The notes beneath the pieces were generated by a model. It worked only from the letters and a program-made list of their open reading frames with translations. It did not search any database and was not told the DNA's origin. A DNA stretch of 64,000 bases from Halomonas sp. 54_146 (GTDB lineage Bacteria > Pseudomonadota > Gammaproteobacteria > Pseudomonadales > Halomonadaceae). The stretch is from positions 62,001-126,000 of the forward strand of contig NZ_LGEN01000002.1 of NCBI RefSeq assembly GCF_001507855.1. The letters run 5' to 3'. The translations under genes and the position numbers were made by a program. Below, one piece after another: positions 7,587 to 10,689 of this stretch (positions are counted from its first letter, which is position 1; every line of letters starts with the position of its first letter).

Positions 7587-8612
7587 ATGAAAATGAGAAA
7601 GCCCCTGCAAGGCCGTATGAAACAGCTTTCTGCTGGTAGCCTGCTGGCCCTGTGCGTTGGCGCAGGCCTCGCGCTGGCGCCGCTTACCCTGCAGGCGCAA
7701 AACTTCCAGTCCACCCAGCGTCAGGTATTGGACAGCGTTGTGGCCGTGGTTAACAACGATGTCATTATGCGCAGCGAATTAGACAACCGCGTGGTGCAAA
7801 TTGAGCAACAGGCACAAGCACAGGGCGGCAATCTTCCGCCGCGTAGCCAGCTAGAACGGCAGGTGCTTGAGCGCATGGTGATGGAGGAGATTCAGCTGCA
7901 GATGGCCAACAATGCCAGTTTGAGCATTGATGACACCGAGCTAAATGCCCAGGTGCGCGCTATTGCGGAATCCAACGGCATGACGCTGGACGAGTTTGCG
8001 GACGCCGTTGAAGCGGATGGCATGACGCTGGCTAGCGTGCGAGAAGAATTGCGCCGTGAAATGCTGATGCGTCAGGTGCAGCAGCGCCAAATCAGCAGCC
8101 GTGTCACGGTCAGCGACCGCGACGTTGAGCGCTTTTTAACCCAGCAGCCAGGGCAATCCGGCGACCAGCGTTTTATTGAAGAAATCCGCGCCCGCCATGT
8201 GTTGATTGAGCTAACCCCCAACCGCGATGACAATCAGGCCCGCGTGCGAGCCGAAGAAGTACGCCAGCGCCTCGCACAAGGTGAAGATTTTGCCTTGGTA
8301 GCCCGTGAGGTGAGCGACGACAGCGGCACTGCGCTTAACGGTGGTGAGCTTGGCTGGGTGCGCCCAGGGCAAACCGTTCCTGCTTTTGAGGAAGCGATGC
8401 GTAGCCTGGGTGAAAACCAGCTATCTCAACCGGTTCGCTCCCAGTTCGGCTACCACATTATTGAAGTGCAGGAACGTCGCCGCCAGAACGTGACGCAAGA
8501 GAGCCAGCGTGAGCAGGTGCGCCAAGCGATCTTCCAGCGTCGCGCCAACGAAGAGCTGAGAAACTGGCAGCAAGAGATTCGTTCACAAGCCTTTGTTGAT
8601 ATTCGTCTCTAA
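7587..8612 (+). CDS. surA: Periplasmic chaperone SurA, single-parvulin form
   Basis: Periplasmic chaperone/prolyl isomerase that escorts outer-membrane proteins, including LptD encoded just upstream, to the BAM machine. Signal peptide about residues 1-37; SurA N-terminal chaperone domain about 45-180; one parvulin PPIase domain about 200-298 (ARHVLIEL ... GGELGW ... FGYHIIEV); a short C-terminal helix. At 341 aa it is about 90 residues shorter than the ~430 aa, two-parvulin SurA of E. coli and Pseudomonas. One PPIase domain is missing, and the remaining one resembles the catalytically active second domain (from memory, not aligned). The stop overlaps the pdxA start by one base. Confidence 0.93.
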   Translation: MKMRKPLQGRMKQLSAGSLLALCVGAGLALAPLTLQAQNFQSTQRQVLDSVVAVVNNDVIMRSELDNRVVQIEQQAQAQGGNLPPRSQLERQVLERMVMEEIQLQMANNASLSIDDTELNAQVRAIAESNGMTLDEFADAVEADGMTLASVREELRREMLMRQVQQRQISSRVTVSDRDVERFLTQQPGQSGDQRFIEEIRARHVLIELTPNRDDNQARVRAEEVRQRLAQGEDFALVAREVSDDSGTALNGGELGWVRPGQTVPAFEEAMRSLGENQLSQPVRSQFGYHIIEVQERRRQNVTQESQREQVRQAIFQRRANEELRNWQQEIRSQAFVDIRL

Positions 8613-9682
8613 TGGCGGCCGGCACTCTATCGCCCGATAGCGCGCTGCCGGTGGTAGTGACCACCGGTGAACCGGCGGGCATTGGCCCAGAGCTAACGCT
8701 CATGCTGGCGGCTCAAGGCGCGTTGCCTGCCAAGACGGTCGCCATTGGCGACCCGAAAATGCTGCGCCAGCGGGCAGCGGCACTGACGTTAAACGTCACG
8801 CTGGTGACGTGTGCGCCGGGTGACGTGGTGCCGAGTGGTTCAGGCGTACTGCCCGTGTGGCCGGTCGCACTGCGCGAGCCCGCAACGCCAGGGCATTTAA
8901 ACCCCCGCAATGCCGATTATGTGCTGGCGACATTGGCACTCGCTGTGCAGGCTTGCCAAGCAGGCCACGCCGCCGCCATGGTCACAGCGCCGCTGCATAA
9001 AGGTGTCATCATTGAAGGGGGTCACCCAGGCTTTACCGGCCACACCGAGTGGCTTCGTGATGCCTGCGGCGTCGATGAAGTGGTGATGATGCTGGCCACC
9101 GATGCAGCACTGCACGCCAGCGCCCCAAGCTGGCAGGGCAGTGGCGATTTACGCGTGGCGCTGGTAACCACCCACTTGCCGCTGCGCCATGTTGCCGACG
9201 CCATCACCTTTGATCGGGTAACCCGCATCAGCCGCTTGCTGGCGGCCGATTTACAGCGGCAGTTTGGCATTGCCAAGCCGTGCATTGCGGTGTGTGGTTT
9301 AAACCCCCACGCCGGTGAGGATGGCCACTTGGGGCGCGAAGAGCTGGATATTATTATTCCCGCGCTTGACGCCCTGCGCGCCGAAGGAATAGATATCCAC
9401 GGCCCGTTTCCCGCTGATACGCTGTTTACCCCCCGGCACCTGGCGGGGGTTGATGCGGTGCTGGCGATGTACCACGACCAAGGCTTAGCGGTGCTCAAGT
9501 ACGCAGGCTTTGGCCAGGCCGCTAACATTACCCTGGGCTTGCCATTGGTGCGTACTTCCGTCGACCATGGCACCGCGCTGGGTCTGGCGGGCAAAGGCGT
9601 GGCAGACCCCGGTAGCTTAAAAGTCGCTATCGCCCTTGCGCGCCGTCTAGCCGCCCAGCGGCTGTCTGCTGCTGAAATTTGA
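8612..9682 (+). CDS. pdxA: 4-hydroxythreonine-4-phosphate dehydrogenase
   Basis: NAD-dependent enzyme of the DXP-dependent pyridoxal-phosphate pathway, oxidising 4-phosphohydroxy-L-threonine. Marks: TTGEPAGIGPEL at the N terminus, TAPLHKGVI, GFTGHTEWL with a metal-binding histidine, and the C-terminal MYHDQGLAVLKY and GTALGLAGKGVADPGS blocks. Length is 356 aa against ~330 usual, with the excess at the N terminus. The ATG overlaps the surA stop (TAATG), indicating coupling. The surA-pdxA-rsmA order is standard in Gammaproteobacteria. Confidence 0.96.
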   Translation: MAAGTLSPDSALPVVVTTGEPAGIGPELTLMLAAQGALPAKTVAIGDPKMLRQRAAALTLNVTLVTCAPGDVVPSGSGVLPVWPVALREPATPGHLNPRNADYVLATLALAVQACQAGHAAAMVTAPLHKGVIIEGGHPGFTGHTEWLRDACGVDEVVMMLATDAALHASAPSWQGSGDLRVALVTTHLPLRHVADAITFDRVTRISRLLAADLQRQFGIAKPCIAVCGLNPHAGEDGHLGREELDIIIPALDALRAEGIDIHGPFPADTLFTPRHLAGVDAVLAMYHDQGLAVLKYAGFGQAANITLGLPLVRTSVDHGTALGLAGKGVADPGSLKVAIALARRLAAQRLSAAEI

Positions 9683-9685
9683 TCC

Positions 9686-9786
9686 GGTGCCAGGGTAGGT
9701 TGCAGCGAGGGTCTTTTTCCAGGGATGGAAAAAGTAGCGCCCAAGGACGGGTTCACAGCGCCCTCGCGGAAACCTACTCTGGTACT
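9686..9786. repeat. Highly structured intergenic palindromic element between pdxA and rsmA
   Basis: A ~101-base nested palindrome. Outer arms 9686-9701 and 9771-9786 pair over 16 bases with only three differences, all G-U compatible in RNA. Inside, GCGAGGG (9705-9711) pairs with CCCTCGC (9761-9767). A central 9-bp hairpin CTTTTTCCA/TGGAAAAAG (9713-9721 with 9726-9734) is closed by a GGGA tetraloop of the GNRA class. A GCCC/GGGT mini-stem sits in the remaining part. Only one copy is in this window, so calling it a dispersed repeat (REP/MITE-like) is an inference from its form. It could also be an RNA processing site or an sRNA within the operon transcript. Confidence 0.6.
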
Positions 9787-9867
9787 GATTCATGCAGACA
9801 ACCAGTTGCGACAGTGCTGGCTACTACATACTCCCGATTGAATCCGCATTCCAAGGAACACCGTTTG

Positions 9868-10689
9868 ATGTCTACTGTGCCCCAACACCGCGCCCGTAAA
9901 CGCTTTGGTCAAAACTTTTTACGGGATCTCGGCATTATTTCGCGGATCATTCGCGCCGTTGGCCCGCGTTCGACGGACCGCCTTGTCGAAATCGGCCCTG
10001 GCCAAGGGGCGCTGACCGAACCGTTGCTGGAAGCCGCCGGGCACTTAGAGGTAATCGAGCTAGACCGCGACCTGATTCCAGGCCTGCGCGTGCAGTTTTT
10101 CAACTACCCCGACTTTGTGATTCACGAAGGCGACGCGCTAAAGTTTGATTTTGCCGCGCTAAAAGGCGATGGGCCGGCGCTGCGGGTGGTGGGCAACCTG
10201 CCTTATAACATCTCCACGCCGCTGATCGTCCACCTGCTAGCGGCAGGAAGTGCCATAGAAGATATGCACTTTATGCTGCAAAAAGAGGTGGTTGAACGCT
10301 TGGCTGCGGAGCCAGGCGGCACCGACTGGGGGCGTCTATCGGTCATGGCGCAATACTATTGCCAGGTTGAACAACTGTTTATTGTGCCGCCGGAAGCCTT
10401 TGTGCCGCGCCCCAAGGTTGACTCGGCCATCGTGCGCTTAACCCCGCATGAGACGCTGCCCCATACGGCGGATGACCCAGCGCTGCTGTTTGAGCTGGTC
10501 AAGCTCGCCTTTGGCCAGCGGCGCAAAACGCTGCGCAATAACTTCAAAGGGCGAGTGAGTGCCGAGACCTTGGAAGATTTAGGTATCGATCCCGTTCGTC
10601 GCCCACAAACCTTAACAGTGGCGGAATACGTGGCGATTGCTAACCGCGTGGCGGCCGATGAGCAAGCGAGCGGGGGTGGTGAAGGGTGA
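9868..10689 (+). CDS. rsmA: 16S rRNA dimethyladenosine transferase
   Basis: KsgA/RsmA dimethylates two adjacent adenosines in the 3' hairpin of 16S rRNA, a late small-subunit assembly checkpoint. Marks: RKRFGQNFL at the N terminus, the SAM motif VEIGPGQGALTE, the VVGNLPYNIS catalytic motif (NLPY), and the VPPEAFVPRPKVDSA block. The real start is ATG 9868, preceded by AAGGAA; the frame is open further upstream but through the palindromic element. Length is 273 aa, typical. The last codons overlap the GTG of apaG. Confidence 0.97.
   Translation: MSTVPQHRARKRFGQNFLRDLGIISRIIRAVGPRSTDRLVEIGPGQGALTEPLLEAAGHLEVIELDRDLIPGLRVQFFNYPDFVIHEGDALKFDFAALKGDGPALRVVGNLPYNISTPLIVHLLAAGSAIEDMHFMLQKEVVERLAAEPGGTDWGRLSVMAQYYCQVEQLFIVPPEAFVPRPKVDSAIVRLTPHETLPHTADDPALLFELVKLAFGQRRKTLRNNFKGRVSAETLEDLGIDPVRRPQTLTVAEYVAIANRVAADEQASGGGEG

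What the first reader, a model, noticed from the sequence alone, without database searches (positions are those of the whole stretch)
9686..9786. Nested ~101-base palindromic element inside the pdxA-rsmA junction
Seen: outer 16-base arms that pair completely if G-U is allowed, an inner 7-bp stem, and a 9-bp hairpin with a GNRA-class GGGA loop. All three arm differences keep pairing in RNA, which suggests selection on the RNA fold rather than on DNA symmetry. It lies inside an operon whose other junctions overlap by 1-4 bases (surA-pdxA, rsmA-apaG), so it is a real interruption. Inference: a dispersed REP/ERIC-like element of halomonads, an mRNA processing/stabilising site, or an embedded small RNA.
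Basis: partly seen in the sequence, partly recalled or inferred. Interest (0 to 1): 0.72.

Follow-up and report, generated by a model that had tools for sequence, protein, structure and literature searches.

The report
Dispersed hairpin element with CsrA-like loops
The 101-base palindrome is one copy of a small repeated element found in about a fifth of the gammaproteobacterial genomes sampled, and its transcript would form two hairpins whose loops match the binding site of CsrA, a global RNA-binding regulator, although binding has not been tested.

Summary
The palindrome is real: a three-way junction (9685-9787), one of 16 copies in its genome. At the pdxA-rsmA junction 3 of 30 same-genus genomes have a full copy and one a remnant, so the insertion is lineage-limited. 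A covariance model finds the family in 56 of 274 Gammaproteobacteria genomes (own included), one with at least 150 copies.

Stems vary but stay paired. Both hairpin loops keep CANGGANG, the published CsrA/RsmA motif, 22-25 nt apart. Best reading: a REP/ERIC-like repeat whose transcript offers one CsrA dimer two sites. Binding, transcription here and the copying machinery are inferred.

Against it: outside Halomonas copies are not sense-oriented (31 sense, 43 antisense); csrA was not found in 4 of 56 carriers, one 98% complete; the nearest Rfam family, Ysr224, matches the opposite strand, below its cut-off; 47 of 114 Halomonas-type copies have lost the first loop motif to an insert; two-sided stem changes might partly come from DNA-level arm correction.

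The parts
9685..9701 (+). left strand of outer stem P1a (CGGTGCCAGGGTAGGTT)
   Evidence: fold; all 9 modelled P1a pairs show two-sided changes in A2
9705..9712 (+). left strand of inner stem P1b (GCGAGGGT)
   Evidence: fold; family variants such as GCGGGGG/CCCCCGC and GAGAGGG/CCCTCTC
9713..9734 (+). hairpin P2, stem 9713-9721/9726-9734
   Evidence: fold; 5 of 8 modelled pairs with two-sided changes in A2
9720..9727 (+). CAGGGATG: C-G-closed hexaloop AGGGAU, matches the published CsrA/RsmA motif CANGGANG
   Evidence: motif from PMC6849547 and PMC7652899 (passages)
9735..9738 (+). linker between P2 and P3 (TAGC); GTAGC in nearly all rows of A2, mostly only AGC kept in distant copies
9739..9752 (+). 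hairpin P3, stem 9739-9742/9749-9752
   Evidence: fold; UAC/GUA and other paired variants in distant copies
9742..9749 (+). CAAGGACG: C-G-closed hexaloop AAGGAC, second CsrA-type motif, starting 22 nt after the first
9753..9759 (+). conserved linker (TCACAGC, part of GGTTCACAGCGCC)
   Evidence: near-invariant in A2
9760..9767 (+). right strand of inner stem P1b (GCCCTCGC)
   Evidence: fold
9771..9787 (+). right strand of outer stem P1a (AACCTACTCTGGTACTG)
   Evidence: fold
8612..9682 (+). pdxA; its TGA (9680-9682) ends 2 bases before the element
Evidence: ORF; homologous junctions.
9868..10689 (+). rsmA/ksgA (the listed TTG start at 9679 would read through the element; the ATG at 9868 aligns with relatives)

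Best explanation
It is one copy of a dispersed chromosomal palindromic element family of Gammaproteobacteria. SHOWN by sequence: a long outer stem whose letters differ between loci while staying paired, topped by a conserved apex of two short hairpins, each with a C-G-closed ANGGAN hexaloop, starting 22-25 nt apart. INFERRED: when an element is transcribed in this orientation (here inside the pdxA-rsmA mRNA), the outer stem holds the apex in place and one CsrA/RsmA dimer clamps both loops. The copy would act as a local CsrA-binding site and, over many copies, as a distributed CsrA decoy. How copies spread is unknown: I found no element-linked transposase, and copies are almost absent from the phage, plasmid and viral collections searched.
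For: Family: 16 true copies in the own genome; 31 of 58 genomes hit by BLAST, own included, all in the same genus; 56 of 274 class genomes, own included, with R2. Structure: 21 of 31 pairs with two-sided changes in A2, covariation 0.348 against 0.138 shuffled and at most 0.101 slid; in A6 28 of 31, 0.740 against 0.172 shuffled and at most 0.143 slid (A6 was fitted to the structure, and 4 of its 31 pairs fail in most rows). Loops: among 114 distinct copies found by a pattern that does not contain the loops, 109 have CANGGANG in P3; of the 59 with an ordinary P2, 56 have CANGGANG and 3 CAGGACG. Of 159 distinct distant copies 119 have exactly two motifs, at spacing 23 (104), 24 (10) or 25 (5); 37 have one, 2 three, 1 none (found with models that contain the loops). 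Published CsrA/RsmE sites are hairpins with ANGGAN hexaloops, N variable; one dimer bridges sites 10-63 nt apart (PMC7652899, passages); a 5-nt loop is tolerated by RsmN (PMC3791407, passages). The own genome has a complete csrA reading frame. In the outer stem of 74 Halomonas-type copies G-U mismatches exceed A-C ones, 46 to 17, as expected for RNA of this strand. In their tandem spacers 27 copies are sense, 12 antisense (p 0.024).
Against: Outside Halomonas orientation is not sense: 31 sense, 43 antisense (p 0.20), and antisense to the nearer gene in 22 of 32 convergent spacers; the two together, 41 against 65, lean antisense (p 0.025). csrA was not found in 4 of the 56 carriers (drafts 75, 88, 67 and 98% complete), nor at relaxed threshold in the three of them re-searched, yet the loops shown for these three (G065, G126, G252) are mostly intact. 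csrA is only slightly commoner among carriers: 52/56 against 183/218, p 0.13. Rfam Ysr224, the nearest RNA family, reported as transcribed in Yersinia, matches the opposite strand. 47 of 114 copies carry an insert that breaks the P2 motif, so a two-site clamp is not kept in them. G-U excess is absent in the part of distant stems outside the model (20 against 24). Two-sided changes with few intermediates could be made by DNA arm correction. No binding or expression data for Halomonas were seen.
Confidence: 0.5

Rival explanations
1. A purely DNA-level selfish repeat (REP/MITE-like). The hairpin is recognised as DNA by a transposase or by replication/repair proteins; the loops are conserved as a protein-DNA recognition site and RNA is irrelevant.
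For: Orientation to genes is not sense outside Halomonas; presence, absence and a remnant at pdxA-rsmA; arms change on both sides at once; intergenic, mostly just after stop codons, some as inverted pairs.
Against: Y1/RAYT-type transposase (PF01797) does not track copies: none found in G003, G008, G019, G013 and G014, where BLAST finds 19, 18, 10, 8 and 5 copies; the own genome has only two weak matches, one at a contig end. Only ordinary genes, judged by eye, between four sets of neighbouring copies. The GTAG foot is mostly not kept outside Halomonas. No significant replication-strand bias (35:24 in three Halomonas, p 0.19; 29:44 in G305, p 0.10). Both loops match CsrA sites.
Confidence: 0.27
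2. A Ysr224-type small RNA read from the opposite strand; CANGGANG on this strand is only the complement of its loops.
For: RF02770 matches the opposite strand of six distant copies with 47, 38, 31, 22.5, 21.6 and 18.6 bits and of the window copy with 13.7 bits, E 1.8; Ysr224 has multiple transcribed copies in Y. ruckeri (PMC12112432, passage).
Against: All these scores are below the gathering score of 70. G-U over A-C excess favours this strand (46:17; P1a of A2 24:6).
Confidence: 0.1
3. An ERIC-like mRNA processing or stabilising hairpin between pdxA and rsmA, acting through RNases, without CsrA.
For: Sits between co-directional genes in the sense direction; ERIC in Yersinia is reported to destabilise upstream transcripts (PMC2229807, passage).
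Against: Does not explain near-invariant ANGGAN hexaloops with free N positions.
Confidence: 0.1
4. Chance palindrome or intrinsic terminator.
For: None beyond the hairpin itself.
Against: z -6.88, 16 genomic copies, no T-run after the stem.
Confidence: 0.01

Closest known systems
Ysr224 (Rfam RF02770), Yersinia sRNA
   Same: The reverse complement of its consensus, as printed, shows the same apex: two hairpins with CAGGGATG and CATGGATG loops, GAGCCTAC and TTTACGGCG. Several transcribed copies in Y. ruckeri (PMC12112432, passage); in a table of the 20 most prevalent sRNAs in bacteria (PMC9029176, passages and section 2.2).
   Different: Rfam models the opposite strand; the window copy and the 18 loci scanned at relaxed thresholds stay below its cut-off of 70 bits. 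A CsrA reading of the other strand was not in the passages I read.
TwoAYGGAY (RF01731) and reverse-complement Bacillaceae-1 (RF01690)
   Same: Two hairpins matching the CsrA-binding motif; [quoted passage not shown] both predicted to bind CsrA (PMC4333381, passages). TwoAYGGAY listed for human gut, gamma-Proteobacteria and Clostridiales (PMC2864571, table passage).
   Different: Neither was among the matches at E up to 10 for window 9600-9900 or six loci. Those passages do not describe a many-copy dispersed repeat.
CsrB/CsrC and RsmX/Y/Z sponge RNAs
   Same: CsrA captured by GGA hairpins.
   Different: Those are dedicated sRNA genes (recalled); here two sites on an intergenic repeat without an identified promoter.
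ERIC / REP-BIME / Correia repeats
   Same: Small non-coding palindromes dispersed in intergenic, often transcribed DNA (PMC2229807, passages; REP partly recalled).
   Different: Here the arms vary and the apex is conserved; no TA termini, target duplication or RAYT link was found.

Membership tests
Ysr224 RF02770 | cmscan score at or above gathering (70 bits) | tested here: not met
   best 47.0 bits (L322); window copy 13.7 bits, E 1.8
Ysr224 RF02770 | same apex sequence and hairpins on the modelled strand | tested here: inconclusive
   similar apex, but on the opposite strand
TwoAYGGAY RF01731 | covariance model match | tested here: not met
   absent from matches at E up to 10 for window 9600-9900 and six loci
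TwoAYGGAY RF01731 | two hairpins with AYGGAY loops | tested here: inconclusive
   two ANGGAN loops, but the first N is often G
CsrA/RsmA binding site | ANGGAN hexaloop closed by C-G, N variable | tested here: met
   definition from PMC7652899, PMC6849547 (passages)
CsrA/RsmA binding site | two sites 10-63 nt apart on one RNA | tested here: met
   22 nt start to start in the window, 23-25 in 119 of 159 distinct distant copies; not met in the 47 of 114 long forms
CsrA/RsmA binding site | physical binding by CsrA | not testable with these tools
   needs EMSA or CLIP
REP/RAYT elements | GTAG at the foot of the hairpin (recalled) | tested here: not met
   present in the Halomonas copies, mostly replaced elsewhere (CGAGC, GGAGC, CAAGC)
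REP/RAYT elements | cognate Y1/RAYT transposase in the genome | tested here: not met
   several many-copy genomes without a PF01797 match at E 0.001
ERIC | conserved 127-bp sequence with TA termini and target duplication | tested here: not met
   arms differ between loci and lack TA termini; no duplication recognised by eye at pdxA-rsmA

The most novel reading that the evidence does not exclude
A mobile or formerly mobile repeat has seeded ready-made two-site CsrA clamps through a fifth of gammaproteobacterial genomes, in one case at least 150 times, so that the cell's CsrA pool is titrated by a dispersed sponge and new genes can enter the CsrA regulon by insertion; part of the 'Ysr224 sRNA' annotations would be the other strand of this element.
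Probability: 0.35. Interest if true: 0.85.

Novelty: new variant of a known kind. Interest (0 to 1): 0.62.

Why it matters
If CsrA binds, a widespread repeat becomes a source of regulatory sites and a distributed buffer of a global regulator. It would also suggest a candidate missing CsrA partner for Halomonas: a review table lists the sRNA partner of H. anticariensis as unknown (PMC7366521, passage). If CsrA does not bind, a family with identical conserved hexaloops and freely varying matched arms still asks for a recogniser and for a mechanism that keeps the arms matched.

Tried and rejected
GNRA loop as the conserved feature: rejected. Rfam: no family at gathering score for the element in the window (only a tRNA elsewhere) or for 19 distant loci; at relaxed thresholds microRNA families also matched some long hairpins (MIR1858, mir-2331, mir-266, mir-5592), taken as chance. 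RAYT/IS200 link: no tracking with copy number. Autonomous element between neighbouring copies: only genes that look ordinary by eye. Lagging-strand bias: not significant; ori and ter read by eye from 20 sampled GC-skew stretches per genome, tallies made by hand from the binned counts, copies used 73 of at least 150 in G305, 25 of 34 in G017, 21 of 23 in G005, 13 of 14 in G033 (listings and, for a few, 8). Phage or plasmid carriage: 1 viral contig for the gamma apex pattern, 0 for the Halomonas pattern, 0 phage records, one plasmid-collection record (a 1.83-Mb Halomonas sp. PA16-9 sequence); 0 E. coli records with one distant copy as query. Literature: six core 16-mers gave no paper; the listings on repeats with CsrA showed none on this subject (listings only); only openly licensed papers are held. 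The search with NF003712 was meant to find dnaA but I recalled the accession wrongly; it was the last genome search.

Rows dropped: of 61 non-redundant copies three long forms were left out of A1 and ten more truncated long forms out of A2, leaving 48. Contexts used 74 of 152 Halomonas and 142 of 162 distant copies after removing those with similar or too short flanks. Gene calls are a simple codon model of mine; at the window it put the rsmA start at the TTG, so this copy counted as overlapping a gene. Arm statistics used 71 of 88 copies. A5 and R2 contain one antisense artefact row (L150, minus strand). Distant copies were found with models that contain the loops, so their loop counts are biased upward; one search is free of that bias. 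Counts are capped at 14 per genome. Junctions were read for the 30 best of 37 same-genus genomes, own included. In A6 four modelled pairs are unpaired in most rows.

Full report
What was checked. The sequence at 9680-9790 folds at -61.3 kcal/mol, better than all 200 shuffles. The structure is a three-way junction: outer stem P1a 9685-9701/9771-9787, inner stem P1b 9705-9712/9760-9767, hairpin P2 9713-9734 and hairpin P3 9739-9752. It is the only such repeat and the only family match in the window.

It is a dispersed family. BLAST finds 17 matches in the own genome; covariance model R1 finds 16 true copies plus one match at E 0.1 on the other strand of one of them. At the pdxA-rsmA junction 30 of 37 same-genus genomes were read, own included: full copies in the own genome, G017 and G028, a right-arm remnant in G008, no model match in the other 26 (G031 has a short spacer of unclear origin). 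So this copy is a lineage-limited insertion that has decayed in at least one relative. In G017 and G028 it carries an insert of 50-51 nt in the P2 loop.

It is not confined to halomonads. R1 finds matches in 27 of 274 Gammaproteobacteria genomes, own included; R2, built from 91 rows, in 56 of 274, 50 of 222 genera. G305, two contigs, has at least 150 copies, all that were scored. Distant copies have arms averaging 33 aligned nt, about 91% complementary, in some copies perfect over 31-38 nt, and in G295 the arms of different copies differ widely in sequence.

What is conserved. In A2, 21 of 31 pairs change on both sides; in A6, 28 of 31 (an alignment fitted to the structure). The loops do the opposite: in A2 P2 and P3 both read C-A-N-G-G-A-N-G, with N variable. 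In 114 distinct copies fetched without using the loops, P3 has this motif in 109; 56 of 59 ordinary P2 hairpins have it, the other three keeping GGA in a 5-nt loop; 47 are long forms without it and 8 more have other altered P2 forms. The motif, the hexaloop and a distance within 10-63 nt are those published for CsrA/RsmA and RsmE (PMC6849547, PMC7652899, PMC3791407; passages read). The own genome has a complete csrA reading frame.

Tests that could have gone against CsrA, and did in part. Halomonas-type copies lie mostly just after stop codons: 27 tandem sense, 12 tandem antisense, 17 convergent, 3 divergent, 12 overlapping, 3 at edges, of 74. In distant genomes the 3' placement holds for tandem spacers (median 35 nt to the stop, 107.5 to the next start) but orientation does not: 31 sense, 43 antisense, 32 convergent (22 of them antisense to the nearer gene), 11 divergent, 12 overlapping, 13 at edges, of 142. 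csrA is found in 52 of 56 carriers and 183 of 218 others (p 0.13); in genomes at least 90% complete and at most 5% contaminated 44 of 45 against 168 of 191 (p 0.055). The four carriers without csrA are drafts of 67 to 98% completeness; three were searched again at E up to 10 with no csrA over the cut-off, and their loops are mostly intact. G-U exceeds A-C in Halomonas-type arms (46:17) and in distant arms (77:46), but not in the part of distant arms outside the model (20:24). A strand bias of mutation could add to this excess.

A caution on covariation. In P1b and P2 of A2, 61 cells changed on both sides and 5 on one side only. Such an excess could come from strong selection, or from arm-templated correction during replication, which keeps palindromes matched without selection (recalled mechanism). 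It does not explain the loops.

Known relatives. No Rfam family reaches its cut-off for the element. At relaxed thresholds Ysr224 (RF02770) matches the opposite strand of six of 18 loci, best 47 bits against a cut-off of 70 (the second of these listed only E up to 0.01). A 2022 review has Ysr224 in its table of the 20 most prevalent sRNAs in bacteria, and a 2025 paper reports several transcribed copies in Yersinia ruckeri. TwoAYGGAY and reverse-complement Bacillaceae-1 are earlier two-hairpin RNAs predicted to bind CsrA; neither matched here.

Verdict. That this is a copy of a dispersed, structure-conserved element is close to certain. That its apex is built to bind a CsrA dimer is the best reading of the loops, at about even odds given the orientation data, the long forms and the carriers without csrA. 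What copies it, and whether it acts as decoy, local regulator or passenger, is open.

Noticed in passing
L198, L200 (pdxA-rsmA junction of G017 and G028): The same copy as in the window carries a 50-51 nt insert inside the P2 loop; the insert breaks CANGGANG on this strand, and in most long forms it carries a CCGCCATGGATGGCGG hairpin on the other. Such long forms are 47 of 114 copies.
   Followed up: partly
L097, L044, L023, L059, L123: A second kind of enlarged P2 has an unrelated insert; where enough of it was printed it holds a TGGCCATGGATGGCCA-type hairpin on the sense strand.
   Followed up: no
L297, L294, L291, L299, L247, L260, L276, L284: Copies occur in close clusters: same-strand copies about 227 nt apart in G305 (L297), or inverted pairs in other genomes.
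   Followed up: no
G140 loci (L185, L265-L270, L285, L336-L341): In this genome 11 of 13 tandem-spacer copies are antisense to the flanking genes, a lineage-specific orientation bias without explanation.
   Followed up: no
L142:1914-2024: A Halomonas-type copy that appears, by eye from its flanks, to lie within a coding region.
   Followed up: no
window 9679-10689: The open frame of rsmA extends upstream through the whole element to a TTG overlapping the pdxA stop; an automatic annotation could mis-start rsmA there (my own gene caller did).
   Followed up: partly
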